Shown piece after piece: positions 1,413 to 30,700 of a DNA stretch of 37,624 bases. How positions within the stretch are numbered: the first letter of the stretch is position 1; the number at the start of each line of letters is the position of its first letter. The notes below the pieces were generated by a model. That model made no database searches and was not told where the DNA came from. It worked only from the letters and a program-made list of their open reading frames with translations. The position numbers were made by a program, and so were the translations under genes. Source of the stretch: a virus; IMG/VR virus record IMGVR_UViG_3300042564_003692, positions 1 to 37,624 of that record. One strand, written 5' to 3'.

Positions 1413-1452
1413 GCCGTCCCGCTATCACTGCGGGCGCGGCGGGTCAATCCCT

Positions 1453-1471
1453 AACGCAATCGGATTGCGTT
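1453..1471. promoter_or_regulatory. Perfect 19-bp palindrome upstream of the late block (late site A)
   Basis: AACGCAATC and GATTGCGTT flank a single central base. The inner 16 bp (1456-1471, GCAATCGGATTGCGTT) match two other sites, at 22283-22298 and 25465-25480. The site lies 44 bp upstream of the first late start codon at 1412. It is most likely an operator or activator site for late transcription. The XRE-type protein encoded at 2396-2647, just upstream, is a plausible but unproven ligand. Confidence 0.6.
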
Positions 1472-1871
1472 TGCAGCTCGCTTGCAGTTCGAGGGCAGAC
1501 ATCGATGGGATGACGATGGGGTGAAAGGGGGTTGGCCCATTGCGGAATTTTTTGTGGGGCAGGCTGACCGGTCCCGGATTTTTGGGTGGTCGATCCCCGA
1601 CCCCCTCCCCCCCCCTGGTCGGCGGCCATAACTTGTTACAACGGGTCTAATGCCGAGTCCGTTGCCGCTGGTTATCAACGACTTGTGATTGCTCGGCTGT
1701 AATTGTGGCAAGTCGGGGCGCTTCCTGTCACCCATGCGCATGTTCCACGGCTGACCCTCGCGCGTTTCCGGGGCGGCCGGCGCAACCGGGACCGGTTCGG
1801 CTCGCCCATCGTCCGACCTGCCTCCGACCTGCTGCCTGTCCGCTCCCCCCTTTCGTGCTCTCGCTCGCCCC

Positions 1872-1957
1872 GACGCGCAGGAAGGCACCGTGGCAGCCTC
1901 GCGCCCCTTCTCTGGGATCATGTGGCACCCTGCACCCTGAGACGCGCAGGAAAGCAC
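1872..1957 (+). repeat. 17-bp direct repeat, two copies
   Basis: GACGCGCAGGAAGGCAC at 1872-1888 and GACGCGCAGGAAAGCAC at 1941-1957 differ at one base and lie 69 bp apart. Both are in the noncoding region between the early and late blocks. They may bind a protein, but no function can be assigned. Confidence 0.5.
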
Positions 1958-2049
1958 TTCTGTCGCCAGCAAAGCAGCACCAGCAGAACTGGGTGCGATC
2001 CGTTGAATGGGATCCAAGTGGGATCGGCAGCAGGGGCAAATTGGGCAGC

Positions 2050-2314
2050 GGGGGACATGGGGGACATAAGGGCGGGTTGCAGAAACATGTTCTATAGAGA
2101 GAAATCCCCCCTATAGGGAGCTTAGGACATTTATGTCCCCCATGTCCCCCAAGGCAGGATAGGTCTTTCCCTCTTAGTGTTTTAGATGCGGGGGACATGG
2201 TTTTTCTTGATCCCCCAACGGGGGACATGGGGGACATGGGCATTTTGGGCGGGGGACTAGCGGGAGATGGAAACGGAACTCGCTGCTGAAAATCACAGGG
2301 GAGATGGGGGACAT
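2050..2314. repeat. Iteron array: eight copies of GGGGGACAT, candidate replication origin
   Basis: Exact plus-strand copies start at 2050, 2059, 2190, 2220, 2229 and 2306. Two exact copies on the minus strand occupy 2133-2141 and 2142-2150. Three pairs are directly abutting (2050/2059, 2133/2142, 2220/2229). The first two pairs form a perfect 20-bp inverted repeat, GGGGGACATGGGGGACATAA at 2050-2069 against 2131-2150, with a 61-bp spacer. A near copy (GGGGGACTA) lies at about 2251-2259. Phage P4 alpha protein, a primase-helicase of the same general type as the one encoded at 3030-5510, binds repeats of the form GGTGAACAR, which match this word at six of nine positions. Origin function is inferred. 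Confidence 0.6.
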
Positions 2315-2341
2315 GGATACGAGACGCTCTCTCGACTGCAC

Positions 2342-2375
2342 GAAAATGCCCGCCGACCTGGATTGGCCGGCGGGC
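2342..2375 (-). terminator. Intrinsic terminator of the early operon
   Basis: Read on the minus strand, just after the stop of the last early gene at 2396, GCCCGCCG and CGGCGGGC form a perfect 8-bp GC stem (2368-2375 with 2348-2355) with a 12-nt loop. A short T-rich run, ATTTTCG, follows. Its position between the early operon and the noncoding origin region fits a stop for early transcripts. The T-tract is short, so termination may be partial. Confidence 0.6.
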
Positions 2376-2395
2376 TGGGGCGTGGTGCTGATCGG

Positions 2396-2647
2396 TCACT
2401 TCACGAGCCGCAGGGTCACCCCATCATCCACCAGGATATCGTTGGGGGTGCAGTCGAGTGCCGCGCAGAGCTTCATCAGGTTCGCCAGGCACGGTCGCCC
2501 GTATGCCCTCTCGAAGCGACCGATAGAGTCAATCGACAATCCGGTGACCTTGGCGACATCGGCCTGGGTCATCCCTCGAGCCTGCCGGAAGGTTGCGAGT
2601 CGCCCTGCAATCATGTAGTCGAGTCGTCTCTGGTCGTTGGTGGTCAT
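2396..2647 (-). CDS. XRE-family helix-turn-helix regulator, last gene of the early operon
   Basis: An 83-aa DNA-binding protein with the order typical of Cro/CI-type domains: a GRLATFRQARGMTQADVAKVTG helix pair, the recognition helix SIDSIGRFERAYG, then LANLMKLCAALDCTPNDIL. It is nearly all domain, with only a short C-terminal tail. A GTG at 2659, overlapping the upstream stop (GTGA), would add four residues. The ATG at 2647 is preferred because it is preceded by the ACC-rich leader common here. As the last early gene, next to the late block, it is a good candidate regulator of late transcription or of the switch from early to late, possibly acting at GCAAYNNNRTTGCGTT sites. That assignment is inference. 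Confidence 0.8.
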   Translation of the reverse strand: MTTNDQRRLDYMIAGRLATFRQARGMTQADVAKVTGLSIDSIGRFERAYGRPCLANLMKLCAALDCTPNDILVDDGVTLRLVK

Positions 2648-2655
2648 AGTGGTGA

Positions 2656-3015
2656 TCACTGGGGGCGCTGCCTTCTTTCGATCTCCGACTTGAGGTAGAC
2701 CGACAGGTCGAGCGCCTCTTCGTAGGCGTGCCGCAGCATGTCGTCCTGCGACTCCGCGACGGTCACCCCGTATTTGGCGATACCCAGGCGCTGCCGCGCC
2801 GCGATGTCCTGGCAGACTCGAGCCTCGACGCCGGTCGCGGCCGGCGGGTCCGGTTCACCCTGCATCCTGTTCTGTTCCTCGTTCCAGTCGTCGATCAGCT
2901 TGCGGATCGCGGTGCTGATAGCCGGCGGCGGGTCGTTGCCGATTGCCTCCTCGATCAGTGCATACCATTCCGGTGGTTCCGGGTGGTCGGGCGGGTCGTT
3001 ATACCAGTCGTTCAT
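2656..3015 (-). CDS. MazG-like / conserved phage protein of unknown function
   Basis: A 119-aa protein. Its C-terminal half (AARQRLGIAKYGVTVAESQDDMLRHAYEEALDLSVYLKSEIE) carries the pattern R-Q-x-L-G-x-x-K-Y-G ... H-A-x-E-E-x-L-D, common in small phage proteins near replication genes. The EEALD motif recalls the metal-binding helix of MazG-type nucleotide pyrophosphohydrolases, but the protein is short and catalysis cannot be assumed. The ATG at 3015 was chosen because it follows the primase-helicase stop (3030) with the local TGAACCAATCCACGACC-ATG leader. A longer in-frame extension would lie antiparallel to nothing but inside the primase gene and looks like noise. Its stop overlaps the alternative GTG start of the XRE gene. 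Confidence 0.6.
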   Translation of the reverse strand: MNDWYNDPPDHPEPPEWYALIEEAIGNDPPPAISTAIRKLIDDWNEEQNRMQGEPDPPAATGVEARVCQDIAARQRLGIAKYGVTVAESQDDMLRHAYEEALDLSVYLKSEIERRQRPQ

Positions 3016-3029
3016 GGTCGTGGATTGGT

Positions 3030-5510
3030 TCAGTCGTCCCCCAGTTCGCTCCCGATGATCCGCAGGCCGCGGAACATGGTGGCGTTGTTGTGCCCACGAT
3101 AGCTCTCGAGTCCTTTCTCGCGCAACCTGGCAGTCAGTTGCCGCACGGTGCTGTAGTTCGACTTCTCCCCGTTGTCCTGGCACCAGGCCAGGTAGACCTT
3201 GAGCAACCGCTGCGCCGGCACGCTGTCGGCGAGATCGCGCTCGGTGCGCTCCTCGAGGAAGTTGCCGACCTGGTCCTGCTCGGACTGGTATTCGCCGGTC
3301 GCCTCGAGCACGGCTTTCGGTGGGCACAGTCCGCCCATCTCGTGATACTCCTGCCAGGCGGCGAGCACCCAGTTGAGGATCCCCGGCAGTTCCTGGCGGA
3401 ACTCGGCGAGCACCTCGTTGCGCGGCCGGCGCTCGTCGATCGGGATGGTGACGGTGAATGGGATCAGGCAGATGCGCCGCCAGATGCCTGCGTCGGTGCC
3501 CTCGATGGTCGGCTTGTGGTTGCCGGTCATCCAGAGTTTGTGCGTGGGGCTGAAAACGTAGGGTCGCTCGTAGGGTCGGCGCGCCACGATGTCGTCGCCG
3601 CCGATCAGCGCCTTAACCATGCTCTCGGCGAGCTTGTAGCCGGCCGGGATCTCGTCGGTGATCGCGACCCGGCAGCCTTCGAGCGTGCTCTTCTTGTAGT
3701 CGTCGTTGGCATCGGATCGCGTCGCCAGCAGCGTCTTGACGTCGATGGTCGTCATCAGTTCGCCGAGGAGCATTTTGAAGGTCAGCATGAACGTGCTCTT
3801 GCCGTTCGCGCCGCCGCCGTAGCTGAAGAACAGCACGTCGGCATCGGTCAGTCCGGTCAGGCTGTAGGCGACGGCGCGCATCACGAACGACGAGACCTCT
3901 GGGTCGGGCAGGATCCGGTCCACGAACGCGCGGAACTTCGGGCAGTCCGCATCGGGATCGAACGTCACGCCGGCGCGGTGGGTGAGCATGTCGCGGGGGT
4001 GCGCCTCGCGGAACTCGCACGCATCGAAATCGAGCACCCCGTTCTCGACGGCGAGCAGATACGGGTTGCGGTCGAACTCCGACGCGCGGCAGGCGAGCTT
4101 CGGCATGGCTTTCGCGAAATCCATCGTCCCTCGCAGGTGCTGCGTGCGGTGCAGATCCTTGATGCGAGCGGTGGCGTTCTTGATGACCGCGCGCCGCGGG
4201 TCGCTCTTGATGTCCTCGCTCGGGTGGGCGGCGATCTGCTGCCGCATCTCGGCAATCAGGTCACGATAGCAACCCGACAGCGTGTCGGTCATCTCGACCT
4301 TGACGGCATCGACGTGGTCTCGCTCCCAGATCGACCGGCGATAGATGCGCCAGCACCCGGCGAAATGGTCGTAGAGTCGCGACCCCTGGGCGACCGACTG
4401 CCACAGTTCGGCGTCGCCGCGCTGCTCGTGGTTGAGGCACCACTCGACGAACTGCGGGTTGTCGCTGTCCTCGGCACCCTCGACGTCGGAGATCCGGCGC
4501 GCCGGCCCGTCGGCGTGGTCGGGTGCCACCTCGATGAGCTTCGACCTCGACTCCCCGTTGGCGAAACTGATGCGGCCGCACCAGCGTTTCCGGCGGGCGG
4601 CCGCCGCGGCGTCGAACCCGTGCGCCTGAGCATACCAGGCGAGCGTGCCGACCCGGATGTCGCGCAGACGCTTCTTGTATTTCCGCTGATACTCGCCGGG
4701 TTCCTCTTCCGGCGACCATTCCTCGAGCAGCGAGCACCCGGCAGTCTCGTCGAGCACCGACCACACCGCGGATGCGATGCGGATCCAGTCCTCGTAGTCC
4801 GGCCGCGGTGGGACGAACGCCAGCATCTCGCGGACGTCCTCGACGGTGGTGTCGCCGGCGTCGAATCCGGTCTCGCCGCGGGCAGCCTGCTTCTTCGGCT
4901 GCAGCACCTGGACGTTGTCGCGGATCCATGCGCCCGGGTCGTGCGACACGAAGCACAGGCGGCCGGGATCCTTGGTCGCCCGGTCGATCTTCAGCCCGAA
5001 CCGCAGGAAGTGCTCCTCGGCAGCCTCGAACGACGCGCGGTGCTTCTCGACGTCGGGCAGGATCGAGATGACCGCTTTGACCCCCTTCCCCGATGGGGAG
5101 ACGAATGCGGCACCGACGTGCGGATCGGCGCGCAGCAGGTCCATGATCTCCCCGACGTCGAGATGCGGGTGGTCCTTGCCGTCGAAGTCGCCCTGCAGCC
5201 ACCCCGAGTGCTCGATCGCGCGCTGCTCCGGTGTGGCGTCGCCGCGGCGGGTCTCCATCCAGCCCGACAGCATGACTGCGGGCAGGTTGCGCTTGCTTTT
5301 GTCGTAGTTGTCCTGGCCGCGCGACTCGAGCGCGCTCCGCAGGTCATCCACCTGCGTTTGCCATCGGCCGGCGGAAATCATGCCGACCAGTTCCGGCAGG
5401 GTGATCTCGTCGGTCGGGTCGGATCCGAAGGCATTGTCGAAGAATGCCAGGCGCGGGTGGGCGAGCATCGCCTGGTTCTGGCTAGGGGCGAAAAGGTCGG
5501 AGAGTTTCAT
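3030..5510 (-). CDS. Primase-helicase, D5/P4-alpha type
   Basis: An 826-aa replication protein. Residues about 60-205 resemble the VirE/BT4734-type N-terminal domain (WLQGDFDGKDHP, then AAFVSPSGKGVKAV). Residues about 222-300 resemble a PriCT-2 domain (EDVREMLAFVPP ... DYEDWIRIASAVW). A D5-type N-terminal region precedes a superfamily 3 helicase core: Walker A GGGANGKST (565-573), Walker B-like RVAITDE (614-620), sensor MTGNHKP (661-667) and a GIWRR arginine motif (675-679). The expected role is to open the origin and prime synthesis for host polymerase. It follows the Pif1-like helicase gene by 6 bp and lies about 0.7 kb from the GGGGGACAT array, its likely target. No classic Shine-Dalgarno site precedes the ATG. 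Confidence 0.88.
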   Translation of the reverse strand: MKLSDLFAPSQNQAMLAHPRLAFFDNAFGSDPTDEITLPELVGMISAGRWQTQVDDLRSALESRGQDNYDKSKRNLPAVMLSGWMETRRGDATPEQRAIEHSGWLQGDFDGKDHPHLDVGEIMDLLRADPHVGAAFVSPSGKGVKAVISILPDVEKHRASFEAAEEHFLRFGLKIDRATKDPGRLCFVSHDPGAWIRDNVQVLQPKKQAARGETGFDAGDTTVEDVREMLAFVPPRPDYEDWIRIASAVWSVLDETAGCSLLEEWSPEEEPGEYQRKYKKRLRDIRVGTLAWYAQAHGFDAAAAARRKRWCGRISFANGESRSKLIEVAPDHADGPARRISDVEGAEDSDNPQFVEWCLNHEQRGDAELWQSVAQGSRLYDHFAGCWRIYRRSIWERDHVDAVKVEMTDTLSGCYRDLIAEMRQQIAAHPSEDIKSDPRRAVIKNATARIKDLHRTQHLRGTMDFAKAMPKLACRASEFDRNPYLLAVENGVLDFDACEFREAHPRDMLTHRAGVTFDPDADCPKFRAFVDRILPDPEVSSFVMRAVAYSLTGLTDADVLFFSYGGGANGKSTFMLTFKMLLGELMTTIDVKTLLATRSDANDDYKKSTLEGCRVAITDEIPAGYKLAESMVKALIGGDDIVARRPYERPYVFSPTHKLWMTGNHKPTIEGTDAGIWRRICLIPFTVTIPIDERRPRNEVLAEFRQELPGILNWVLAAWQEYHEMGGLCPPKAVLEATGEYQSEQDQVGNFLEERTERDLADSVPAQRLLKVYLAWCQDNGEKSNYSTVRQLTARLREKGLESYRGHNNATMFRGLRIIGSELGDD

Positions 5511-5516
5511 GAGGTG

Positions 5517-6887
5517 TCAGTAGTCGTCGGAGAGGGAGAACGGTTTGTCGGTCGAGGCGGCGAGGCATCCAACGTCATCGCCCCACGCGGCTTCGATTTC
5601 GCGGTGGAATTTCTTGGCGTCGTCGGAGACCCAAACCCCCTTGAACATATCTTTCATGTACAGCCCGTCGAGACTACGGACCCGGGAGAGTGCGACGTAG
5701 GCTTGCCCAGGCTCGCGGGCCGCGCGGATGTCGATCAACGCGCGCGGGATCGTCAGTCCCTGACTCTTGTGGATGGTGCATGCCCACGCGAGCCGCAGCG
5801 GGAACTGGACGAAGGTGCCGGTGGATTCGCCGATCGTCGCGTCGAACTGCCACGTCTTGCGAGCCACGTTCAGCGCCAGCCCGCTGTCGAGAGCGACGTC
5901 CACCTGGTCCTCGCGCCACCCGGTGACGGTGCCCATGTCGCCATTGGCGGCGAGCAGCGAGTCGCTGCCCTCGGCAGGAAGATTCGCAGTGACCATCACG
6001 CGCGCCCCGATCTTCAGCCGCAGCACGGTCGGGGTCACCAAGTTCTTCTGCAGCCAGGCGATCTCCTCCTCGGGACCGTAACCGTCAGCAGTGAAGATGA
6101 TCTCGGGCGACTCGATCGCCTCGAGTTGGTAGGCATTCCACTTATCGACCTGTGTGTTGTGGGTCATCAGCCGCAGCAGGTTGCGGTCGGGGAACATGGC
6201 GACCCGGGTGCGGAGCAGCGCGGACCCTTCCGATGTCACCCGTCCTTCGCGGAACATGTTGAGCAGGTCCACGAACCGCGCGTCGCGCTGCCGGTGAACG
6301 GTTCGCAGCGAGACTGAATGAAAGCCCGCGGCCTGCCATGCACGAGACTGGAACGCCCAGTCGTAAACGCCAGTCTTGGAGACTGGGGGAAGCTGCAGGA
6401 AATCCCCGACGGCGACCACCTGGATCCCGCCGAACGGAAGGTCCGGTTCATTTCGGATCGCACGGCAGACGTAGTCGATGAAATCGAGCGTGCGCCCCGG
6501 CAGCATGCTGACCTCGTCGATGATCAGCATCCTGGTGCGACTGATCCGCTGGCAGGTCGAGACGAACGACCGGCCGCGACCGCTCATCCATTGGTAGTAG
6601 TCGCCGAACGACTGGTTGGGTTTCGGCCCGATGCCGATCCCCGACCACCGGTAGACGGTCGAGGTTTCGACGTCCTGGCCGAACTCCGCGGAGAGCTTGT
6701 CGCGCAGGTTCAAGGCAGCCACGCCGGTGGTGGCGCAGACTTTCATGCCGCGGTCGCCGAGCCGGCGGCGGATCACCTCCACGGTGACGGATGATTTGCC
6801 GGTGCCGGCCGCGCCGGTGAGGAAGACGTTGCGTCCCTCGTTGATTCTCGCCATTGCGGCGATCTGGTCTTTGTCGAGTGTGATCAT
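5517..6887 (-). CDS. Pif1/RecD-like superfamily 1B DNA helicase
   Basis: A 456-aa ATP-dependent helicase. Near the N-terminus come the Q-motif region and Walker A, GAAGTGKS. These are followed by motif Ia (CATTGVAALNL), Walker B LIIDEVSML, motif III VAVGDFLQLPPVS, and near the C-terminus the UvrD-C2-type motifs TIHKSQGLT and QAYVALSRVRSLDGLYM, as in Pif1 and Dda proteins. A start at 6953 is possible but would overlap the upstream gene by 23 bp. The ATG at 6887 is preferred: it follows an ACCAACCAACCCC leader and starts MITLDKDQ, as is typical of the family. The protein ends SLSDDY, one of several acidic-aromatic tails in this genome. It probably acts at forks or in recombination alongside the SSB-like, exonuclease and RusA proteins. 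Confidence 0.85.
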   Translation of the reverse strand: MITLDKDQIAAMARINEGRNVFLTGAAGTGKSSVTVEVIRRRLGDRGMKVCATTGVAALNLRDKLSAEFGQDVETSTVYRWSGIGIGPKPNQSFGDYYQWMSGRGRSFVSTCQRISRTRMLIIDEVSMLPGRTLDFIDYVCRAIRNEPDLPFGGIQVVAVGDFLQLPPVSKTGVYDWAFQSRAWQAAGFHSVSLRTVHRQRDARFVDLLNMFREGRVTSEGSALLRTRVAMFPDRNLLRLMTHNTQVDKWNAYQLEAIESPEIIFTADGYGPEEEIAWLQKNLVTPTVLRLKIGARVMVTANLPAEGSDSLLAANGDMGTVTGWREDQVDVALDSGLALNVARKTWQFDATIGESTGTFVQFPLRLAWACTIHKSQGLTIPRALIDIRAAREPGQAYVALSRVRSLDGLYMKDMFKGVWVSDDAKKFHREIEAAWGDDVGCLAASTDKPFSLSDDY

Positions 6888-6930
6888 GGGGTTGGTTGGT
6901 GTGGTTATCGACACTTCAGGGTCGGGACAA

Positions 6931-7236
6931 TTATCTGTTCGGGATACGGACATAGACGGATCGCTCCGACTCGGGCAGCGACCAGTAATGGCGATTGAGT
7001 TCTTCGGCGTTGCCTTTCACGTCCACCCAAAGCCGCTCCCTCAGAGCCGCCATTCTCCACCATTGGCCGCGGGACAGCACGTAGTGGCGACAGGCGCAGG
7101 TAAGTCCGCGCTGCTGAAGGATTTTGTGGACGCCGCGACGAGGGCCTTCACCGCATCGAGAACAGCGCCAGCAATCCCGAACCAGCCGCTGGACTGAATC
7201 GCCAGCGGGCTTTGGAGGTGTGTCGGCGGTTTGCAT
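6931..7236 (-). CDS. Small cysteine-rich protein, possible zinc-binding
   Basis: A 101-aa protein not recognised as a named family. Cysteines at residues 22, 25 and 28 (CWRCSRC), with CAC and a histidine at 47-51, could bind one zinc ion. The C-terminal half is basic with several tryptophans (QWWRM, HYWSLPESER). The ATG lies five bases after the upstream stop at 7242. It sits inside the replication operon, so a DNA-associated role is plausible but unproven. Confidence 0.55.
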   Translation of the reverse strand: MQTADTPPKPAGDSVQRLVRDCWRCSRCGEGPRRGVHKILQQRGLTCACRHYVLSRGQWWRMAALRERLWVDVKGNAEELNRHYWSLPESERSVYVRIPNR

Positions 7237-7241
7237 GGCGA

Positions 7242-7457
7242 TCAGTCAGCTTGGACGTTCGTCCGATAGATCGCTACGTAGAGGTGTAACTCGGGCGCGT
7301 CTGCGTAGCGCTTCCACGTCCGGCTTCGCACCGTCCATTTCTGGCTTTCGTGGTCGATCTGGTCCCCTACTGCGACAGCGTGGGGCAGACTCCATTCTTC
7401 GATTTTGATGCAGCGTCCGTCAGTTTCGCAGAGTGCGACGGTTGTAGTGGTTTTCAT
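7242..7457 (-). CDS. Hypothetical protein, replication operon
   Basis: A 71-aa protein with alternating hydrophobic residues suggesting a small beta-rich fold (TTVALCETDGRCIKIEEW, then LHLYVAIYRTN). It has no recognisable motif, signal peptide or membrane segment. It is followed at five bases by the cysteine-rich gene and preceded by a gap of about 70 bp in which nothing is recognised. Confidence 0.5.
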   Translation of the reverse strand: MKTTTTVALCETDGRCIKIEEWSLPHAVAVGDQIDHESQKWTVRSRTWKRYADAPELHLYVAIYRTNVQAD

Positions 7458-7526
7458 AGCGATCGGAGTTTGCTGGTGAATTCCCGGACGAACAAGGCCG
7501 CCGCACGCGACCTGTCCCTGCCGTTG

Positions 7527-7847
7527 TTAGGTTTGAGGCGGAGACCCGCCGCCATCCGGCAGGGCCGGTCGCGTGGGCGCAGCGTTCGTCGCAAAATGGA
7601 ACTTGGCGCGGCAGGCTTCACACTCAAAAGCCTTGAAGGGATTCCCGGCGTGATATTCCTCGTATGGGATCAGCTCCAACCCGACCATTCGGCGCGCGTC
7701 CTCGTTGTAGCAGTATGGGCACATTTCGCGCTTGTCTCGCTCGGGGTGCGTATATCCGAAAGGCGACACAAACGACGAACAAGTCGCGGATGGACAATCC
7801 GCCTTCTGGGGTTCTTTCGGAGCGGGGATTTGGTCAGTGAGTGCCAT
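7527..7847 (-). CDS. Zinc-ribbon-like small protein
   Basis: A 106-aa protein with two C-x-x-C knuckles, MCPYC at about residues 42-46 and CEAC at about 76-79, spaced as in a zinc ribbon. An earlier cysteine pair (C18, C23) could form part of a second site. The C-terminus is proline- and glycine-rich. The start MALTDQIP at 7847 lies 14 bp inside the preceding gene; upstream in-frame codons run through that gene in another frame and are rejected. Zinc-ribbon proteins of this size in phage replication operons are usually uncharacterised. Confidence 0.55.
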   Translation of the reverse strand: MALTDQIPAPKEPQKADCPSATCSSFVSPFGYTHPERDKREMCPYCYNEDARRMVGLELIPYEEYHAGNPFKAFECEACRAKFHFATNAAPTRPALPDGGGSPPQT

Positions 7848-8082
7848 CTTGTATCGGAGTTTGAGTGTCGGCGGATGCCATCGCTTGGACGTTCGACTTG
7901 AAAGCCCGCTGCGCCGCCTTGGCGATCGCACGAAGTTTCTTGAGTGGCAGCGCCCGCAGTTCGGCGATGATTGCATTCCGCTCGTCTCGTGCGGCGTGCG
8001 CCCGTGCCAGGGCATGCTTGGCATTCCTGGCACGGGTCCGCTGCTCGCGGCGCTCGGTGAGGTTCTGGATGGTAAGACTCAT
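7834..8082 (-). CDS. Small basic, helical protein
   Basis: An 82-aa protein, very rich in arginine, alanine and glutamate (NLTERREQRTRARNAKHAL, then ALPLKKLRAIAKAAQRAFK), probably all-helical and possibly nucleic-acid binding. The start MSLTIQN overlaps the RusA-like gene stop as ATGA, which fixes it. Its 3' end overlaps the zinc-ribbon gene by 14 bp. No family is recognised. Confidence 0.5.
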   Translation of the reverse strand: MSLTIQNLTERREQRTRARNAKHALARAHAARDERNAIIAELRALPLKKLRAIAKAAQRAFKSNVQAMASADTQTPIQDGTH

Positions 8083-8537
8083 TCCGGGTCTTCGCTGAGT
8101 TCGTGGATCTCGATCTCGCACCCTGGGGGGCGCAGCTTGGACTCATATCGTTTGCGAGCGATGAGCGTCACGACCAGCGAGTCGTCGGTCCACACACCGA
8201 GCGACGTCAGCGCGTCCATCACAGCCTTGGCCAGGTTGTCGGCATCCGGCTTACCGGTGAACAGGCTCGACGCATGCGCCGGCTTGATCTCGCCGTTCTT
8301 CTTGAGGTGCCCCGCCGGCCGCGGCATGTGGAACGTCAGCAGCAGCGACATCGGGGCGTGGACCTTGCGGTTCTCGAACTCGCGGAAGGCAAGAGCGATC
8401 TGCCCCTTCCAGCCCTCCGAGGTGCCAGGATCGAAGACTGCGGCGCGGCCGCCACGCACGAATGCGCGCGGCCGCGGTTGTCCTTTCGGCTGCCCCTTGA
8501 CGTAGATGCTGCAGATGAGTGATCGGGTGATGTTCAT
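8079..8537 (-). CDS. rusA: RusA-like Holliday junction resolvase
   Basis: A 152-aa protein with the RusA pattern: an N-terminal beta strand leading into VKGQPKGQPRPR, and the conserved metal-binding acidic block KPDADNLAKAVMDALTSLGVWTDDSLVV, whose D-x-D and D-D residues are the catalytic aspartates in this family. The length is close to E. coli RusA (about 120 aa) and its phage relatives. It resolves four-way junctions during replication and before packaging. Both ends overlap their neighbours as ATGA, so it is translated as part of a coupled string. Confidence 0.85.
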   Translation of the reverse strand: MNITRSLICSIYVKGQPKGQPRPRAFVRGGRAAVFDPGTSEGWKGQIALAFREFENRKVHAPMSLLLTFHMPRPAGHLKKNGEIKPAHASSLFTGKPDADNLAKAVMDALTSLGVWTDDSLVVTLIARKRYESKLRPPGCEIEIHELSEDPE

Positions 8538-8818
8538 GTGTGGTCGCCTGAAAGGTGGTAGTTGCCCCGCTCTTGATGCCTCAGTAGCTCAAACCCGGAA
8601 ATGAACCCGAGTGACTGCCCCTCGTGTTGCTTTGGGACTGTCGGTCCGGTCGCGTCGATCTCGCGGGCCTGCTCGAGCGTGCTGCGCGGATATTTCTTCG
8701 CGAGGTCGTGCTCCTCCGCTGTGCGGAATGCGGGAGGGATCGAGGCAAGGGGCGCGCGCCGCCGGTGCTTTTCAAGGGCAGCGCGCGCCAGTTCCATCTC
8801 GTGGTCAGTCAACGGCAT
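8534..8818 (-). CDS. Hypothetical protein, replication operon
   Basis: A 94-aa, mostly helical protein (DHEMELARAALEKHRR near the start). The middle, PPAFRTAEEHDLAKKYPRST, is followed by a loop and a C-terminal SGFELLRHQERG. No family is recognised. The start at 8818 is supported by the TGAAGACC-ATG spacing after the upstream stop. The stop overlaps the rusA-like start as ATGA. Confidence 0.5.
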   Translation of the reverse strand: MPLTDHEMELARAALEKHRRRAPLASIPPAFRTAEEHDLAKKYPRSTLEQAREIDATGPTVPKQHEGQSLGFISGFELLRHQERGNYHLSGDHT

Positions 8819-8823
8819 GGTCT

Positions 8824-9054
8824 TCACTTTCGAGTGAACTTCAGCGTGCCGCGGATCTCCCGGTCGAACTCGACGTCGAGCCTTTTCAGCGTGTCGATGT
8901 CGTCCTTGTCGAGGTCGTCCGGGGTGTCGATCGCCTTCTGGACGACCCGCTGCTCGTTGCCGGACCCGAGCCTGACGCAGACTCGCTTGAGGATCTCGAG
9001 ATCCCGGTCGCTGATCGGGCACCGGAGGTTGTTGGTTGGTTGGGTGAAGATCAT
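8824..9054 (-). CDS. Hypothetical protein, replication operon
   Basis: A 76-aa, charged, helical protein (SDRDLEILKRVCVRLGSG, then DDIDTLKRLDVEFDREIRG). No known motif. It lies between the 160-aa coiled-coil gene (stop 9067) and the 94-aa gene (start 8818), with spacers of 12 and 5 bp. Its leader contains TGACCCA from the preceding stop. Confidence 0.5.
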   Translation of the reverse strand: MIFTQPTNNLRCPISDRDLEILKRVCVRLGSGNEQRVVQKAIDTPDDLDKDDIDTLKRLDVEFDREIRGTLKFTRK

Positions 9055-9066
9055 CGCCGTGCTGGG

Positions 9067-9549
9067 TCAGTAGTCGTCACCTGCCGGTGCGTCGCCGGGT
9101 TGCTTCTCGGAGTCATCGACCCGCTCGGCATCGATCTCGACGATGTTGTCGATCACCGCATCCTTCTCCTCCCTCGATCCAGTCTCGAGATCCAGTTGGA
9201 GTTGCTTGTCGGCATCGGTCATCGGCTTCGTCTCGATCACCTCGCCGGTGTCGGTGCGGGAGATCGACTTGATGCCCTTCGCCGGCTCGTCGAGAATCAC
9301 GACGCACTCGACGTCGCGCCACTCCTGCCCGGTGCTGACTTTCCGACGCAGCTCGTCGGCAGTCGCCTGCAGGCCGCCGATGCGGTCCTTGTAGTGGTCG
9401 GCGTTGCGCTTCTTCTCTTCCTCGACTCGCTGGACCTCCTCCAGGGTGGTCGCGAGCTTGATGCCGAAATCCTTTCTCTCCTCGTCGGTGAGTTTGCAGA
9501 GCAGGGATTTGCTGATGGTGTCGGGCATGGTGTTGGTGTTGCTTTTCAT
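9067..9549 (-). CDS. Coiled-coil protein with acidic DDY tail
   Basis: A 160-aa protein. Residues about 32-72 form a strong coiled coil (TTLEEVQRVEEEKKRNADHYKD). Then come a short beta region (RDVECVVILDEPAKGIKSI) and a highly acidic C-terminus ending GDDY. The 3' end, GACGACTACTGACCCA, is shared exactly with the terminase small subunit gene. The ATG at 9549 is preceded by CCCCACTGACCAAC, the non-Shine-Dalgarno leader common here. No enzyme motif is present; a structural or adaptor role in replication is possible. Confidence 0.55.
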   Translation of the reverse strand: MKSNTNTMPDTISKSLLCKLTDEERKDFGIKLATTLEEVQRVEEEKKRNADHYKDRIGGLQATADELRRKVSTGQEWRDVECVVILDEPAKGIKSISRTDTGEVIETKPMTDADKQLQLDLETGSREEKDAVIDNIVEIDAERVDDSEKQPGDAPAGDDY

Positions 9550-9628
9550 GTTGGTCAGTGGGGAAAGGGGTTGCCGCCGAGACCGGTGCTGTCTCCCATG
9601 AGGATCCGGCGTCGGCGGCCCTGGAAAT

Positions 9629-10459
9629 TCAGCGCGTCGAGACGACAGGTTTGAGGGTGACCTTCAGGCCCGCCAGGGCACATGCAGCGCGAAGGCTGTC
9701 GTTTTGCAGGTCGAGCGTCTTCAAAAGCGCGATCGTCTCGCGGCGTTTCACGGTGATCTCGCACAGTTCCGGGTGGTTCGAGTGGAACAGCGCCATGTCG
9801 ATCACCTCGAAGTCCGGCTCGAACCGCACGCCGGCGACGTCGCGCACGCTGGCGACCGCGGCGCTCGATGCCATCCGGTCAGCGAGAGCGACCTGCTTCT
9901 CGACCGCGGCGCGATCTGCCGCTTCCTGCGCTTCGCGGGCTGCCTGCTTCGCCTTGATCGCGTCCAGGATCGACACGCTGCTCGTGGCGGCTGCCGCTTC
10001 CTGCGCGCGCTGCGCCTCGGCGGCGGCACGCTCGGCATCTTCCTTCGCCTTGCGTGCCTCCTCGAACTTCCGGCGCTCTTCCGCCTCGGCGCGCCGCTTC
10101 TCGAGCATCACCTCCTCGGCATGGCGGGCGACCAGCTTCTTGATGCGGGTCTCCTCCAGCACGATCTCGCCGGCAAAGGACTGCGCCGCTTCGTCGATCT
10201 TCTTGCCCAGGTCGATGATCGGGCGCTTCACCTCCAGCCGGGATTTCTCGACGGTGTTGCGGAAAGCGGCGAGGTGCCGGATCTGGAATTGTGCGACGGC
10301 GACCTGGTTGTCGTCGGTGACCTCGGTCACCGCGCCGGCCGCGGCGAGCAGCGACGCTTTGTGGGCGACGGTTTCGGCAGTCACCGACAGCGTGTAACCA
10401 TCGCCGGCGAGTTTGAGGATTGCGGTCGGCTCGGCGACCATCGGGATTTCGGTATTCAT
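9629..10459 (-). CDS. Long coiled-coil protein of the replication operon
   Basis: A 276-aa protein. The N-terminal about 75 residues are globular. A long central coiled coil follows, about residues 80-190, rich in A, E, R and K (RRAEAEERRKFEEARKAKE). The C-terminal domain (VRDVAGVRFEPDFEVID ... LKVTLKPVVSTR) is globular. Proteins of this shape, resembling the DUF1351 type, sit in replication/recombination operons of many temperate phages next to SSB or recombinase genes, with no proven activity. The ATG at 10459 overlaps the upstream stop as ATGA and follows CTCAACCAACCCC. Confidence 0.6.
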   Translation of the reverse strand: MNTEIPMVAEPTAILKLAGDGYTLSVTAETVAHKASLLAAAGAVTEVTDDNQVAVAQFQIRHLAAFRNTVEKSRLEVKRPIIDLGKKIDEAAQSFAGEIVLEETRIKKLVARHAEEVMLEKRRAEAEERRKFEEARKAKEDAERAAAEAQRAQEAAAATSSVSILDAIKAKQAAREAQEAADRAAVEKQVALADRMASSAAVASVRDVAGVRFEPDFEVIDMALFHSNHPELCEITVKRRETIALLKTLDLQNDSLRAACALAGLKVTLKPVVSTR

Positions 10460-10710
10460 GGGGTTGGTTGAGAAATTGGAGATCTTGGAATGCAGTCCCG
10501 CCCGGTCAGCGCGTGACCTGTGCAGACGCAGCACCCAGCGAGGAGTCGGCGGCCCCATCGGGTCGCGCATGTGGCGCAGTGCCCTGGCGGAGGTGCCATG
10601 AGCGCGTCGCGCCGTGCTTTGGCCGCGGCCTGCAGCGTCGCCTGGATGCTGCCCGGGGCAGGTTGCCTCGGCAGTGGCTTGCGCCTCGCCAGGCGGACGT
10701 GGTGCGGCAC
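10456..10710 (-). CDS. Small cysteine-rich protein with probable GTG start
   Basis: An 84-aa basic protein whose C-terminal half has clustered cysteines and histidines (HCATCATRWG, then GCCVCTGHAL), suggesting zinc binding. The GTG at 10710 was chosen because it follows CCAACCGACCAACG, the leader seen at other starts, and because the stop overlaps the next ATG as ATGA. A competing frame starts with ATG at 10739 but has the arginine/alanine-rich look of a shadow. Start confidence is moderate. Confidence 0.45.
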   Translation of the reverse strand: MPHHVRLARRKPLPRQPAPGSIQATLQAAAKARRDALMAPPPGHCATCATRWGRRLLAGCCVCTGHALTGRDCIPRSPISQPTP

Positions 10711-10748
10711 CGTTGGTCGGTTGGAATTTTCGTATTCATCGCCGAACG

Positions 10749-11150
10749 TCAGAATGGGTCGGGCGTCGGGCCTGGGTGCGGGAACGCGGGCAGGCTGAAC
10801 AGGAACAGCGGTCGGGTCGGGTCGTCCGGCCGGCGGATCGCCAGCCACGACCGCTGGTTGCGCGGGTCGGGGTCCGGGATCACGCACAGTTCGGTGTTCA
10901 GCGCCTCGAGCGCCGAATGCCACACGACGTCCTGCTGGCTCGCGTCGTAGGGTTTCCTCGGCACGTCCTCGCCGGATGTCGAGGAGAGCGACCTGGTCGC
11001 AATCTCCCCCCACGGTTCCACCTTCGGGCGATCGTCCCCGGAGATCTTCAGCCCCGGGAACGGCAGAGGCTTTTTTGCCGCCGGTGCCGCCGCCCCCTGC
11101 TTGGAGGCGGCGGCAGCCTTCGCGGCGAGCATCTCGGAGATGGTCGGCAT
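10749..11150 (-). CDS. Hypothetical protein, replication operon
   Basis: A 133-aa protein. An alanine/lysine-rich N-terminus is followed by a globular region (VVWHSALEALNTELCVIPD, then RSWLAIRRP) and a proline-rich C-terminus ending PDPF. Not recognised. The ATG at 11150 lies one base after the exonuclease stop (TGAGATG), so the two genes are coupled. Confidence 0.5.
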   Translation of the reverse strand: MPTISEMLAAKAAAASKQGAAAPAAKKPLPFPGLKISGDDRPKVEPWGEIATRSLSSTSGEDVPRKPYDASQQDVVWHSALEALNTELCVIPDPDPRNQRSWLAIRRPDDPTRPLFLFSLPAFPHPGPTPDPF

Positions 11151-11151
11151 C

Positions 11152-11853
11152 TCAGTAGTCGTATTCGTCCGCAGGGACGGTTTGGTTGCCTCCGGGTGCG
11201 GTCGCAGCAAAGCCGGTCGCCGATCCGATGTTGATGCCCAGGCGCTCGGCGACCTTCGCGGTCAGGTGGATGTCGTTCTCGAGGTAAGCGAGCGCCGCGG
11301 ACTCGTCGAATTTCATCAACTCAGCGAAATGCGCGCCGGATCCATTCTTCGCTCCGACCCCGAGGAATTTCGCGACGGTGTCGAGCGATGTGAACTCCTG
11401 CCGATCGCCCTGCTGGAACACCTCCATCAGGTCGGTGGACCTCGGGTATCCGCGGTCGTGGACCCGCGGCGGGACGAGGCCGTGCGCCCATGACCGGCGC
11501 ACCAGGAACGGCAGGTCGAAGCGGTGGCTGTTGAACCCGATCAGGGTGGTGCTGCCGGTCAGCACGTTCCAGAACTGGGAGATCACGCCGGACTCCTCGC
11601 CGATCAGCGCGTGGTATTCCCCGTCGATCAGCATGCCGATCGCCAGCACCTGGCCGGTCAGCGGGGACAGTGCCGCTCGTGCGAGCCAGGCGTCGCGCTT
11701 CGCCTCGATCGCCGCGGCGATCTTCTCGGGGTCTTTGTAGTTCGATGGTGCCTCGAATTCCGGGGCGAGTGCCGAGATCTGGTCGAAGGGAAGCGGGCCG
11801 GTCTCGATGTCGAAAACGATGGTGGTGGGTGCCATGATAGCAGCGAATGACAT
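11152..11853 (-). CDS. DEDD-family 3'-5' exonuclease (PolB-like proofreading fold)
   Basis: A 233-aa protein with the DEDD exonuclease motifs: Exo I FDIETG (D15, E17), Exo II LIGFNSHRFDLPFL (D113) and Exo III YLENDIHLTAKVAERL (D194). The spacing fits stand-alone predicted 3'-5' exonucleases related to DNA polymerase B proofreading domains. It probably trims ends during recombination or replication with the SSB-like protein encoded just upstream. It ends ADEYDY, an acidic-aromatic tail shared in type with the helicase and other proteins here. The start at 11853 is preceded by CCAATCCAACCACC. An internal ATG at 11835 is possible. Confidence 0.8.
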   Translation of the reverse strand: MSFAAIMAPTTIVFDIETGPLPFDQISALAPEFEAPSNYKDPEKIAAAIEAKRDAWLARAALSPLTGQVLAIGMLIDGEYHALIGEESGVISQFWNVLTGSTTLIGFNSHRFDLPFLVRRSWAHGLVPPRVHDRGYPRSTDLMEVFQQGDRQEFTSLDTVAKFLGVGAKNGSGAHFAELMKFDESAALAYLENDIHLTAKVAERLGINIGSATGFAATAPGGNQTVPADEYDY

Positions 11854-11940
11854 GGTGGTTGGATTGGTGGGAAAGGGTCCGGTGACTGATCCGGTGTCTG
11901 CTCTTCAAGGTGCGAGGCAGCAGTGGGTATTCGCGATCGT

Positions 11941-12696
11941 TCAGAAGTCCTCTTCGGCGGCCGGCTCCTCGGCAGCGCCGCCTTCCAGCAGCGCCTTCAC
12001 CTCGAGCAGCGCCTTCTGCAGTCGCTTGTCGTCGGCAGTGGGTTTCGGTTGCCCTTCGGCACCGCACTTCGGCAGCCACTTTTCGATCAGCGCCTGGACT
12101 GCCTCGGCATCCAGGTCGCCGAGATCGACTCCCTTGTTCTTGCCGACATGCACCTTCGTCTTCTGCCACGACTCGCGGGCTTCTTCCGATGCCGGTGCCT
12201 TCTTGTAGCTCGCGCCCGCGCCGCCGGCGTTGGTCTTGCCGTCACCGTCGCGCTGCTCGCGGTCCTTGATGCGGACGTATTTGCCGGTCCGCGTGAGCGG
12301 CTTGTCGTCCGGTTTCATCAGCACGATGTTCGCGTAGGTCTCGTCGCCCTTGTGCTGGTGCTCGATCATCAGCTTGGCACCCAGGCCGATCAGCGACTCG
12401 GTCTCGAACTCGGCGAGTTCCTGCGCGGTGAGATCGCGACCGAGGATCTTTTTGACGTCCTTGCGGAAGTTCGCCTTCTCGTTCAGACTCGGTGCGTAGA
12501 GCCGGCTGCGGACGACGAACGGGTCGCCATTCTCCATCTTCTCCTCGGTCTCAAAGACCAGGCGGAACTCCTCTTTCGGGCCGAACTCGGTCTCCCGCTT
12601 TTTCAGCGGGGTCACGTCGATGATGACAGCCTTCACGGGGCTTTCGGTTTCAGGGTGGGGAGTGAACTCCCCCGTTTTCTTTTCGCTCAGTTTCAT
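11941..12696 (-). CDS. Single-stranded DNA-binding-like protein with acidic C-terminal tail
   Basis: A 251-aa protein. The first about 130 residues form a beta-rich domain (AVIIDVTPLKKRETEFGPKE, EFRLVFETEE, FVVRSRLYAPSLNEKANFRKD, LIGLGAKLMIEHQHKGDE, YANIVLMKP). This matches by eye a family found beside exonuclease or recombinase genes in many phages and often taken as SSB-like. The middle is a charged linker and the C-terminus is acidic, ending EEPAAEEDF, like the partner-binding tails of SSB and T7 gp2.5. The expected role is coating ssDNA and recruiting replication proteins. The leader CCCTGACCCAATACCACC-ATG nearly repeats that of the gene at 12982-13152. Confidence 0.65.
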   Translation of the reverse strand: MKLSEKKTGEFTPHPETESPVKAVIIDVTPLKKRETEFGPKEEFRLVFETEEKMENGDPFVVRSRLYAPSLNEKANFRKDVKKILGRDLTAQELAEFETESLIGLGAKLMIEHQHKGDETYANIVLMKPDDKPLTRTGKYVRIKDREQRDGDGKTNAGGAGASYKKAPASEEARESWQKTKVHVGKNKGVDLGDLDAEAVQALIEKWLPKCGAEGQPKPTADDKRLQKALLEVKALLEGGAAEEPAAEEDF

Positions 12697-25433: not shown

Positions 25434-25464
25434 GCGGGTGCTTTTATCCGCTCCCCCGCTTTTT

Positions 25465-27092: not shown

Positions 27093-27710
27093 TCAGTAGT
27101 CGTCCTCGTCGGCGATCGCTGGCACCACCTCTGCCTCGATGCTCTGCACCTTGAGCTTGGCCGCCACCCGGTCGCGCGCCGCCTGGATCTCGATCATCAC
27201 GTCCTCGATCGTGGGACCGCTTCGGTGCTCGATGACCACGGTGGGTTGGTTCGACAGCGCGGCCGCCTTGTCGGTCACGATGCCCATCGACAGCGCGATG
27301 TCCTTCAGTGCCGTCTTCGACAGTTGCTCGTCGTCGTCCTCGATCTGGTCGAGCTTGCGCTCGAGCAACCGGGCGAGACCGTTCGACAGGTTCGTCATCC
27401 TGGCGGCCAGGCCGGCGCGGCGAAGCTCGAAGGTGCCGTGGTGCCGCTCGAGCCGCCAGATCTCCTGCGGGTAGACCCCGACGTGGGCGGCGATCGCCCT
27501 CTTGCTCATCCCGGTGTGGGCGAGCAGGTAGAGCGCCTCGGCGGCCAGGGTCGGCTCGCGGATCTCGAGCGCCCGCTTCGCCCGCGGGTTCGCCGCGAGG
27601 TGCTCGGCGGCCCGTTTCCGCACCTCCTCCTGCCAGTGTTCGAGTTCCTGCGACTCGCGCCAGTTCTCGGGCGGGGCCGGCGGCGGCAGGGTGGAGATCG
27701 ACTCGGTCAT
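27093..27710 (-). CDS. Terminase small subunit-like protein
   Basis: A 205-aa protein. A helical N-terminal region is followed by a DNA-binding HTH-like segment (HTGMSKRAIAAHVGVYPQEIWRLERHHG), then a coiled-coil oligomerisation region (LSNGLARLLERKLDQIEDDDEQLSK). A late segment, NQPTVVIEHRSGPTIEDVM, resembles terminase small subunits of many podoviruses. It recognises packaging sites for the large subunit encoded next. It ends ADEDDY. This is the one start with a strong Shine-Dalgarno site (GGAGG, seven bases before ATG), contributed by the end of the giant gene, which it overlaps as ATGA. Confidence 0.75.
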   Translation of the reverse strand: MTESISTLPPPAPPENWRESQELEHWQEEVRKRAAEHLAANPRAKRALEIREPTLAAEALYLLAHTGMSKRAIAAHVGVYPQEIWRLERHHGTFELRRAGLAARMTNLSNGLARLLERKLDQIEDDDEQLSKTALKDIALSMGIVTDKAAALSNQPTVVIEHRSGPTIEDVMIEIQAARDRVAAKLKVQSIEAEVVPAIADEDDY

Positions 27711-30700
27711 CGCATCGCCTCCTTGATCGCTTTCGCGGCTTGGGGATCGACCCGTGCCTTGGCTGCCCGTGGGCTTTGGGTCGGCGCGGGTTCAGCGAAT
27801 GCGCTTTTCGCGTAGGCATCTACCCGGGCTTGACGTCCTGCGGGGTCGAGGGATCCCGGGGAGTGTCGCTGGAAGGCATCTTCAAGGTTTCCGGCGTATT
27901 GCTCACGGAAACGAAGGACATCCCTCCATAACGCTTCAGGGCCTCCTCGTTCGATAAACGCCTTCCGGTAAGTTTCCCCTTTCGGATCGGTTGTCCAGTC
28001 GTGTCCACTGAAAGAAGCCTCCGCTGGGACGTCCTCAAAGTCAAGGTCAAGTCCGGTCTCCTCAACGAACCGCTGGAGGGTATTGATCGCTCTTTTCGCG
28101 GAAGATTCTGTCAATCCGAACATGACCAGACCATCCTTGTTGGGCATCACTTTCGTCGATGCACCGTTGATCACCGATGCATCCTTTGCCGCGGCCTTGT
28201 CGCTGGATTTCTTGGTAGCCTCGACGAACTCGATGAACCTCTTTGAGGTTTCGGCATTCATCTGAGGCAGGATGACTGCCCGGTTGTTTTTGCCCCCGAC
28301 TCCGAATCTGACCCGGGCTGTTCCAGCTTGTTCGGTAGCATGCGCCAGCGCGACTTCAACCATGCCGGCGGCCTCGTTGCTGCCTAGAACCCAAAACTGG
28401 GAACTCGGAGCCGCGGATCCCTCCCAATAGCCCTGTCCAAAATCGGCACCACGGAACGTCGCCTGGGGAGCGACGAGATTGACGATTTCGGGGATCGTCT
28501 TCTCCATCACGGTCCTCGTGATGGCTGTTTTGGTGTCCTCGTCGAAGCTGGAGAATTCTGGATAGAGTTCCCGCAGGCTGCTGCTTAGTCCGTAATCCAC
28601 CTCGGCAGAGATGCGGTAGGTGTTCTCGTCGAGACTGGACGCTAAAGTGGCTTCTTTCAGTCCATACTGCCTGAGCACCCGCATCCAGCCAACAGCTTGC
28701 ACCTGCTCAGGGGACCAATCGGTCCGTCCTTTCCACTTGGTCTTGTTGAGGTATGCCGTTAGGTTTTCTCCCCACTCGGCGATCCCTTCGTAGGTGTTGT
28801 TGCTGGGCGACCCCGTCAGGTCACGAGTGATCGTTCTGCGACCACCCGGGTAGATGATCTCGATCTCTTCCGGGACCACTTTCACCTGGTCTTTGACGGT
28901 CAGGTTTTTCGACCTGGTGACTTTGACTTTGGCCGGCTTGCCATTCACTGTCAGCTTTCCCCTTTCCGCTGAATTCTTCAAGCGAGTCAGCGTCTGCTGA
29001 TCGACGTGACCAGAATCCCTGCCTGTGTGAACGTCGGCGACGAAGGGACGTCCACCGGCAGGGTCGTCACCCATGTATGTGCGGGTCTTTTTCCCCATTC
29101 CCGCGTCCACGAAGTCCGAGAGTTTGGCTCCGTAGCCACCGTCGGGGATCGTGTCCATGAAGACAGATCGCAGCTTGTCGTCCGCCAGTCCGCCCTTTTT
29201 CATGTGGGTTAATCCAGCGATCCCGTCTTTCACCCGGTAGGTATTCCTCACGGCACCTCCTGGGCTTTCGTTCTGCTGTGCCGACAACCATGCCAGCATC
29301 ATTTTCGGAGCGTCAGCTTCGCCGAACTCGGCAACGAACATGTCGTGCAGTTCCCCATACCACGCTGCTGCTGCGTCGATCTCCTTGTCGGAATACCATG
29401 CCTCGGTCTCCTCAACCCACGCATTGAAAGGTTTACCTCCTGATTCTTCATTTGACCCGATCCACAAAGGTTTCCCGTCAACCTCCATGCGGAATGCTGC
29501 GTTTTTCCCAACTCCCGTGCCTGGTCGCCGATTGCGCTTCTGCCTGAGATTCACGGATGGATCTCCGATGCCCGCTGCCATGTTCAGCGTCTGATCCTGC
29601 GGCAGCATCCTGACGTCTGGTGGTCGGGTCGGCATGGTCGGCGATTCGCTGAACGCCACTGCCACTGCCTTCGCGTCATCACTCCACACGCTCATCTTCC
29701 CCCGCGGGGCGGCGGACGCCAATCCGTAGCGTGCGGTGAGGAATGGCGCGCGGTCCCGAGCGACCACCGGAGTGCCAGCAGTCAGGTCTCCTCTTTGAAC
29801 CGCTTGATCGTATTCCTCCTTCTGCTCCGCGGTCATCTCCACCGGCGACATGACGTAGTCCATCTTGTCGCCCATGCTCATTGCCTTCCACTCCGGGGAT
29901 TCGAGGGTGAGAGGAGCAGGCAGCATCCGCGGGTTCGGATCCGGGATCCCGTTCGGTGCCAGGTTCGCCTTCACCTGCTCGTAGCCGAACCGGAAGAGCG
30001 GCTTGCCCTGCATCCGGGTCGTCTGGTTGATGCGGTCGAGCCGGCGCGATTTGAAGACCCCGCCAGCGCGGATCGAGTCGGCGGCGAAGATCGGGTTCAC
30101 GTCCTGCTGCGAGCGGGTCATCAGGCCGAATGCCGTGTTGACGAAGTTCTTGTATTCCGGCCCGTTGATCGACCCGTATTTGTCGGCGAAGTAGGTGTCG
30201 GTCCGCTCGCCCTTCCGGTGGAGGTCGAGCACCGCTTGCGCGTCGCGCAGGATCTCAACCTGGCTGCCGTTGTAGAGTCGCTTGCCACGCTTCGAGGCAG
30301 CGCGCTCGCGCACGTTTTCGACCAGTTGCGTCACGCTCATCGTCTCGACGATGATGTTGCCATCCTTGGTGATTTTCACGCCGACCGGCACCACCTCGCG
30401 GAATGTGGCGGGCAGGGTGCCGTAGCCTTTCCGCTTCCCCTTCCGCGGGATCGTCGCTGCCTGGTAGATCATCAGGAACGTCTCGCCGGTCAGACCCTTC
30501 GCCGACCGGTTGAGCATGCCCAGCATCGCCAGTTGCTTCGCGTTGAAGACTCCCGAGTCCGCCAGGCGCTGCAGCGCCTCCGGGGACAGGTGCGTGCCCT
30601 GCCAGGATCCGTCGGTCTGCGGTGCGAGTTCGCCTTCCGGCAGTTGCCGGCCATTCTGGATCCGCTCCGCTTCCAGTTCGGTGATGATCAAGCCGGCCGC

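What the first reader, a model, noticed from the sequence alone, without database searches (positions are those of the whole stretch)
2050..2314. Dense iteron array GGGGGACAT beside a P4-alpha-like primase-helicase: candidate origin
Eight exact copies of a 9-mer lie within 265 bp, six on one strand and two on the other, three pairs abutting. Two pairs form a perfect 20-bp inverted repeat around a 61-bp spacer holding CTATAG twice. The word matches six of nine positions of the P4 alpha repeat GGTGAACAR. The array lies about 0.7 kb from the gene for a D5/SF3 primase-helicase, in the only long noncoding stretch, and no other origin candidate or polymerase gene is visible. It suggests a self-contained iteron/primase replicon in a temperate phage, with the word and protein co-evolved.
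Basis: partly seen in the sequence, partly recalled or inferred. Interest (0 to 1): 0.75.

Follow-up and report, generated by a model that had tools for sequence, protein, structure and literature searches.

The report
Iteron origin of a temperate phage
A cluster of short repeated DNA words in an uncultured temperate phage is almost certainly the place where the phage starts copying its DNA, read by its own primase-helicase protein; related phages use the same layout with a different word, so it is a new and unusually clear example of a known kind of origin.

Summary
Chance does not produce it.

The origin reading is well supported, though only by sequence. A relative with a 73%-identical primase-helicase (L091) has the same array (GGGGGAC[AG]T, same order and strands) directly 3' of that gene. 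Iteron columns are 85% identical between the two, other columns 48%. Two small genes separate gene and array only in the window.

Across D5-type phages, the strongest short-repeat cluster lies beside the D5 stop codon in 38.5 of 48 dereplicated loci (2.1 expected). The typical form is abutting ~9-bp units as inverted arms around a 59-97 nt AT-rich spacer. The word differs between phages and tracks the C-terminal winged-helix domain better than the helicase domain. Two relatives without an array beside D5 have one near the integrase instead. The cumulative GC-skew minimum lies at ~1985, next to the array.

Phage P4 (crr/ori1), SaPI Rep and plasmid pRN1 are the known kin. The pRN-plasmid "stem-loop" arms are also imperfect 9-bp tandems. 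Verdict: a new member of a known kind. Binding and replication from the array are untested.

The parts
2050..2314 (.). Iteron array: 8 exact GGGGGACAT plus at least 4 degenerate copies (2102-2110 -, 2251-2259 +, 2260-2268 +, 2297-2305 +); proposed phage origin
   Evidence: conserved in L091
2050..2069 (+). Core right arm (in D5 orientation): two abutting iterons
   Evidence: (I1)
2070..2130 (.). Core spacer, 61 nt, AT-richer than the genome (0.54 vs 0.36 for the 65-nt version 2068-2132); proposed unwinding region; holds CTATAG twice and a CTCCCTATAGGGGG hairpin
2131..2150 (-). Core left arm (in D5 orientation): two abutting iterons on the minus strand
   Evidence: I1
2190..2314 (+). Outer iterons on the D5-proximal side (2190, 2220, 2229, 2306 exact; 2251, 2260, 2297 degenerate)
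   Evidence: several aligned with L091 copies
2348..2375 (-). Intrinsic-terminator-like stem between the HTH gene and the array; P4 has a terminator between alpha and crr
   Evidence: P4 annotation
2396..2659 (-). 87-aa Cro/C1-type HTH protein; lies between D5 and array only in the window
   Evidence: no tblastn match in L091's record
2656..3015 (-). 119-aa protein of unknown function (PHROG 11184-like); no match in L091's record
3030..5510 (-). 826-aa initiator: BT4734-like N-domain, PriCT_2, D5_N / SF3 helicase, C-terminal winged helix
3033..3281 (-). C-terminal winged-helix domain (residues ~744-826), proposed iteron reader
   Evidence: Pox_D5 hit; AF2/Foldseek; Mantel test
5517..12696 (-). 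Rest of the replication module shared with relatives: Dda-like helicase 5517-6953, RusA 8079-8537, g160 9067-9549, g313 9629-10570, PolB-type exonuclease 11152-11853, g251 11941-12696

Best explanation
The array is the phage's replication origin (oriV). The C-terminal winged helix of the 826-aa D5-type primase-helicase binds the 9-bp iterons. The two inverted tandem pairs at 2050-2069 and 2131-2150 position two helicase assemblies facing each other across the AT-richer 61-nt spacer, with the outer iterons adding protein. The SF3 ring melts the spacer, the N-terminal primase domain primes, and host polymerase extends bidirectionally. SHOWN here: the array, its conservation with the D5 gene, its placement and architecture across the family, word/winged-helix co-variation, and the skew minimum. 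INFERRED: binding, hexamer placement, melting, priming and directionality.
For: L091 (73% D5) has the same array 3' of D5, iteron columns 85% vs other columns 48% identical. The top 8-mer cluster is beside the D5 stop in 38.5/48 dereplicated loci vs 2.1 expected. Of 18 loci with a tandem-9 plus inverted-arm site above every shuffle, 16 have it beside the D5 stop; the other two are the window and L015. Arms chosen by complementarity alone show lag-9 self-match 0.50 vs ~0.25 at most other lags. Spacers are AT-richer than their locus in 21/21. Word similarity follows the winged helix (partial Mantel r 0.29, p 0.001) more than the helicase (0.08). The C-terminal model is a winged helix resembling the RFX1 DBD and ASFV C962R tail, and that tail is reported similar to the P4 gp-alpha origin-binding domain (PMC10516667). 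Cumulative GC-skew minimum at 1981-1990, block-shuffle p 0.0005. P4 type-1 repeats lie in crr directly 3' of alpha. SaPI Rep origins lie directly downstream of rep and are read by the C-terminal domain (PMC7581432). Origins 3' of the replication gene are experimentally essential in pRN1.
Against: No binding, replication or coverage data. The closest D5 by its C-terminal half after L091 (L012, 55%) has no array in its 5.5-kb fragment. L093 and L097 have theirs far from D5, and L097's is weak (score 22, equal to the highest shuffle). With the array excluded, the detrended skew minimum moves to 3416, and the record may be incomplete. Part of the word/winged-helix correlation may be shared ancestry. 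No PDB hit to P4 gp-alpha itself appeared in the listed rows.
Confidence: 0.88

Rival explanations
1. The array is an operator cluster for the neighbouring Cro/C1-type HTH protein (2396-2659), controlling leftward transcription of the tail gene at 1-1428 or lysogeny.
For: The HTH gene is the nearest gene and a weak promoter-like site lies at 1702-1731(-).
Against: L091 has the same array but no tblastn match to the HTH protein in its record, and there the array abuts D5. The array lies 3' of the HTH gene behind a terminator. Abutting 9-bp tandem units are not the usual dyad operator. Equivalent arrays occur 3' of D5 across the family.
Confidence: 0.05
2. The inverted repeat acts as an extruded DNA hairpin (stem-loop origin as proposed for pRN1), with sequence-specific iteron reading secondary.
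For: pRN1 needs its ~21-nt stem and 58-nt loop, and one stem mutation was rescued by restoring symmetry (PMC4234260). The geometry equals the window core.
Against: In the window and L091 the word recurs at sites outside any single hairpin, in mixed orientations, and the word itself is conserved. Stem arms are tandem 9-mers in phages and pRN plasmids alike, which a hairpin alone does not require.
Confidence: 0.1
3. The array is a G-quadruplex, packaging or partition element unrelated to D5.
For: G-runs at 2050-2080 and 2220-2256 fit a G4 pattern by eye.
Against: Most relatives' words in the same position are not G-rich. No ParA/ParB-type protein was found among the gene products scanned.
Confidence: 0.03

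Closest known systems
Phage P4 replicon (gp-alpha, ori1 and crr)
   Same: Primase-SF3 helicase with C-terminal winged helix; short repeats with 9-bp spacing (4314/4323, 4494/4503) in both orientations; crr directly 3' of alpha behind a terminator
   Different: P4 primase part is TOPRIM (stated in PMC4234260), here BT4734-like; P4 has two separated sites (crr and ori1), here one merged array; the word differs (6 of 9 positions)
SaPI Rep / SCCmec Cch2 self-loading helicases
   Same: Iteron origin directly downstream of the helicase gene, read by the C-terminal domain, Rep thought to bind as two hexamers (PMC7581432); DNA primase 7OLA, recognised from memory as SaPI5 Rep, matched by sequence
   Different: Helicase and primase are separate proteins in some SaPIs and in SCCmec; SCCmec iterons are 5 nt; here a 37-kb phage
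pRN1 family plasmids (ORF904)
   Same: Primase-SF3-winged helix protein; essential origin 54 bp 3' of its gene, ~20-nt inverted arms around ~58 nt; the arms are imperfect 9-bp tandems
   Different: Archaeal; described as a stem-loop and not as iterons; no copies outside the inverted pair were noted
Phage L091 (IMGVR_UViG_3300032004_000406)
   Same: Same word, same array layout, 73% D5, shared replication module
   Different: Array abuts D5; no tblastn match to the window's structural proteins

Membership tests
P4/SaPI-type D5 initiator replicon | Initiator with SF3/D5 helicase domain | tested here: met
   D5_N, DUF5906, PHROG 1156; C962R and 7OLA matches
P4/SaPI-type D5 initiator replicon | C-terminal winged-helix DNA-binding domain | tested here: met
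   AF2 model pLDDT ~85 over the domain, Foldseek to RFX1 DBD and C962R tail
P4/SaPI-type D5 initiator replicon | Iterons 3' of, or near, the initiator gene | tested here: met
   0.7 kb 3' in the window, +24 to +242 in L091
P4/SaPI-type D5 initiator replicon | AT-rich segment between iteron clusters | tested here: met
   AT 0.54 vs 0.36 genome
P4/SaPI-type D5 initiator replicon | Initiator binds iterons and drives replication from them | not testable with these tools
   Needs EMSA/footprint and a mini-replicon
P4 proper | Two separate cis sites (ori1 and crr) | tested here: not met
   All 8 exact words are in one cluster; P4 has two sites
P4 proper | TOPRIM-type primase domain | tested here: not met
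   N-terminal domain is BT4734-like_N plus PriCT_2
pRN1-type origin | ~20-nt inverted arms, ~58-nt spacer 3' of the initiator gene | tested here: met
   20 nt / 61 nt; pRN1 itself remeasured
Host-type iteron plasmid origin | DnaA boxes beside iterons | not tested
   No DnaA-box scan was run

The most novel reading that the evidence does not exclude
Origins of D5/PrimPol-type initiators in phages, P4/SaPI satellites and archaeal pRN plasmids share one architecture: abutting ~9-bp winged-helix sites as inverted arms around an AT-rich spacer of about 60-100 nt. The pRN1 'stem-loop' would then be an inverted iteron pair. The word turns over quickly with the winged helix, and the whole module can relocate in the genome.
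Probability: 0.6. Interest if true: 0.65.

Novelty: new member of a known kind. Interest (0 to 1): 0.5.

Why it matters
It gives a natural, sequence-diverse set of initiator/origin pairs (about 40 usable here) in which the word read by a winged-helix initiator changes from phage to phage. That makes the recognition code and the stem-loop versus iteron question (open in pRN1 since 2013-2014) directly testable. It also gives a practical rule for finding origins in uncultured D5 phages.

Tried and rejected
DNA-level relatives of 1429-3030 in phage and plasmid records: none. The 18-mer tandem word in IMG/VR found only L001, inside a coding frame with no D5, taken as unrelated. A single-protein D5 scan of IMG/VR found nothing; alignment scans did. 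Literature search for the word gave only unrelated papers with matching letter strings. The simple exact 8-mer test missed arrays with degenerate or very short arms (L009, L011, L092), so the inverted tandem test was added. BIP-1 phage, said in PMC4234260 to share a stem-loop, shows no tandem 9-bp arms. The strict tandem-9 test does not fit the Listeria/Bacillus-type arrays, whose copies are more widely spaced. P4 crr was not found by the strict test either, although its annotated repeats show the 9-bp pitch.

Full report
WHAT IS THERE. The word GGGGGACAT occurs eight times in the 37.6-kb record, all within 2050-2314, six on + and two on - (expected 0.39). In 60 simulated genomes no 9-mer reached more than 3 copies in 265 bp. 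Three abutting pairs, the 20-nt perfect inverted repeat and the 61-nt spacer are as described. At least four further two-mismatch copies fill the array. The record is an IMG/VR virus contig with an integrase-like gene. All main genes lie on the minus strand.

THE INITIATOR. The 826-aa product of 3030-5510(-) carries BT4734-like_N, PriCT_2, D5_N, DUF5906 and a C-terminal Pox_D5 match; its best PHROG is a DNA primase family. With a 59-sequence alignment, AlphaFold2 gave mean pLDDT 85, and Foldseek ranked full-length ASFV PrimPol C962R first. Sequence profiles also reach a DNA primase, 7OLA, which I recognise as SaPI5 Rep from my own knowledge. The C-terminal domain alone folds as a winged helix, closest to the RFX1 DNA-binding domain and the C962R tail. 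The C962R paper reports that its tail resembles the P4 gp-alpha origin-binding domain (PMC10516667).

THE CLOSEST RELATIVE. Locus L091 encodes a full-length D5 at 73% identity. Directly 3' of its stop codon, from +24 to +242, lie nine copies of GGGGGAC[AG]T. They follow the window's order and strands with almost no gaps: 85% identity in iteron columns against 48% elsewhere. The replication genes (g251, exonuclease, RusA, Dda-like helicase, D5) are shared, and no window structural protein matched L091's record. The two small genes between D5 and array in the window (119-aa protein, HTH) have no match there. So the array goes with D5, not with the HTH gene.

THE FAMILY. brought in about 100 more D5 loci. 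In dereplicated loci the densest 8-mer cluster lay within -150..+350 of the D5 stop in 38.5 of 48, against 2.1 expected by uniform placement. A stricter search for abutting 9-bp units with inverted arms gave 18 dereplicated loci above all 216 shuffles. Sixteen of these were beside the D5 stop, one was the window (+880), and one (L015) looks like low complexity. When inverted arms were picked by complementarity only, their self-match peaked at lag 9 (0.50; 0.40 at lag 8; about 0.25 at most other lags, 0.34 at lag 12). Spacers of 59-97 nt were AT-richer than their locus in 21 of 21. Words differ: AAGTGGTCG in L010, GGCGAACAT/GGCGAACTT in L090, GTGCGGTAC in L095, GTGAACGAT in L034, ACGGAGATG in L094.

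RELATIVES WITHOUT AN ADJACENT ARRAY. L093 and L097 have none beside D5. The L093 record carries an array of the same design at 33670-33933 (six AAGCCGGAG; inverted arms score 27, above all shuffles) next to an integrase gene. The L097 record has a weaker candidate at about 11885-12210 (score 22, equal to the highest shuffle) next to an integrase-like gene. L012 is only a 5.5-kb fragment and shows none.

CO-VARIATION. Across 41 loci with usable arrays, word similarity correlates with winged-helix identity (Mantel r 0.53, p 0.001). The partial correlation given helicase identity is 0.29 (p 0.001); the reverse partial is 0.08 (p 0.019). This points to the winged helix as reader, but common descent is not fully removed.

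SKEW. Cumulative GC skew is minimal at 1981 (raw) or 1990 (detrended) and maximal at 25,440; the amplitude exceeds block shuffles (p 0.0005). Because all main genes lie on one strand, gene direction does not explain the turn. Leaving the array out moves only the detrended minimum, to 3416.

HOW IT PROBABLY WORKS. Winged-helix domains load D5 on abutting 9-bp sites. The inverted pairs place two assemblies head to head, the SF3 rings melt the spacer, the N-terminal domain primes, and host enzymes extend. Only the DNA-side facts are shown here; the protein steps are inferred from P4, SaPI and pRN1.

KNOWN KIN. P4 carries its type-1 repeats in crr directly 3' of alpha, with a terminator between, and again at ori1; the window has a terminator-like stem between HTH gene and array. 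SaPI origins lie directly downstream of rep and are recognised by the C-terminal domain (PMC7581432). pRN1 needs a ~100-bp element 54 bp downstream of orf904, which also works when moved (PMC4234260; PMC3869888). Its authors call it a stem-loop and explicitly not an iteron structure. Remeasured here, the arms of five pRN plasmids show lag-9 self-match 31/55, shuffle p 5e-5, or 1e-4 over all lags. Against a pure iteron reading, one pRN1 stem mutation was rescued by restoring symmetry.

HOST. Two bacterial loci with 46-49% D5 are Opitutales/Opitutia MAGs, so a Verrucomicrobiota host is plausible but not shown.

VERDICT. Observation confirmed and interpretation supported; a new member of the P4/SaPI/pRN1 kind of origin, with the displaced position and single merged array as local differences.

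Noticed in passing
L117 14670-14933 (record position 33670-33933) and L118 11885-12210: Arrays of the same design sit next to an integrase or integrase-like gene, far from D5, in the L093 and L097 records (L097's is weak): the origin module appears to relocate.
   Followed up: partly
L123 5083-5185 and pHEN7, pRN2, pDL10, pSSVx equivalents (L125-L128): Arms of the pRN-plasmid stem-loop origins are imperfect 9-bp tandem repeats, a feature I did not see mentioned in the passages read.
   Followed up: yes
window 1872-1888 and 1941-1957: Direct repeat GACGCGCAGGAAGGCAC / GACGCGCAGGAAAGCAC, 69 bp apart, in the noncoding stretch beyond the array; role unknown.
   Followed up: no
L009, L010, L011, L089, L092, L095, L110 spacers: Inside many spacers lies a second, inner inverted repeat (e.g. 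CTAACTTTT...AGAAGTTAG), conserved while the outer iteron words change.
   Followed up: no
window 2105-2120: Hairpin CTCCCTATAGGGGG inside the core spacer, scored as terminator-like on the minus strand.
   Followed up: no
window 27707-33505: 1932-aa protein without any PHROG match, probably a large virion protein beside the terminase gene.
   Followed up: no
L106 about 1430-1674 nt 3' of D5 stop: Nineteen copies of CAAGCAGG in 250 nt, a separate repeat cluster not of the iteron type.
   Followed up: no
L001 6440-6457: The only other exact tandem ATGTCCCCCATGTCCCCC in IMG/VR lies inside an open reading frame of an unrelated phage.
   Followed up: partly
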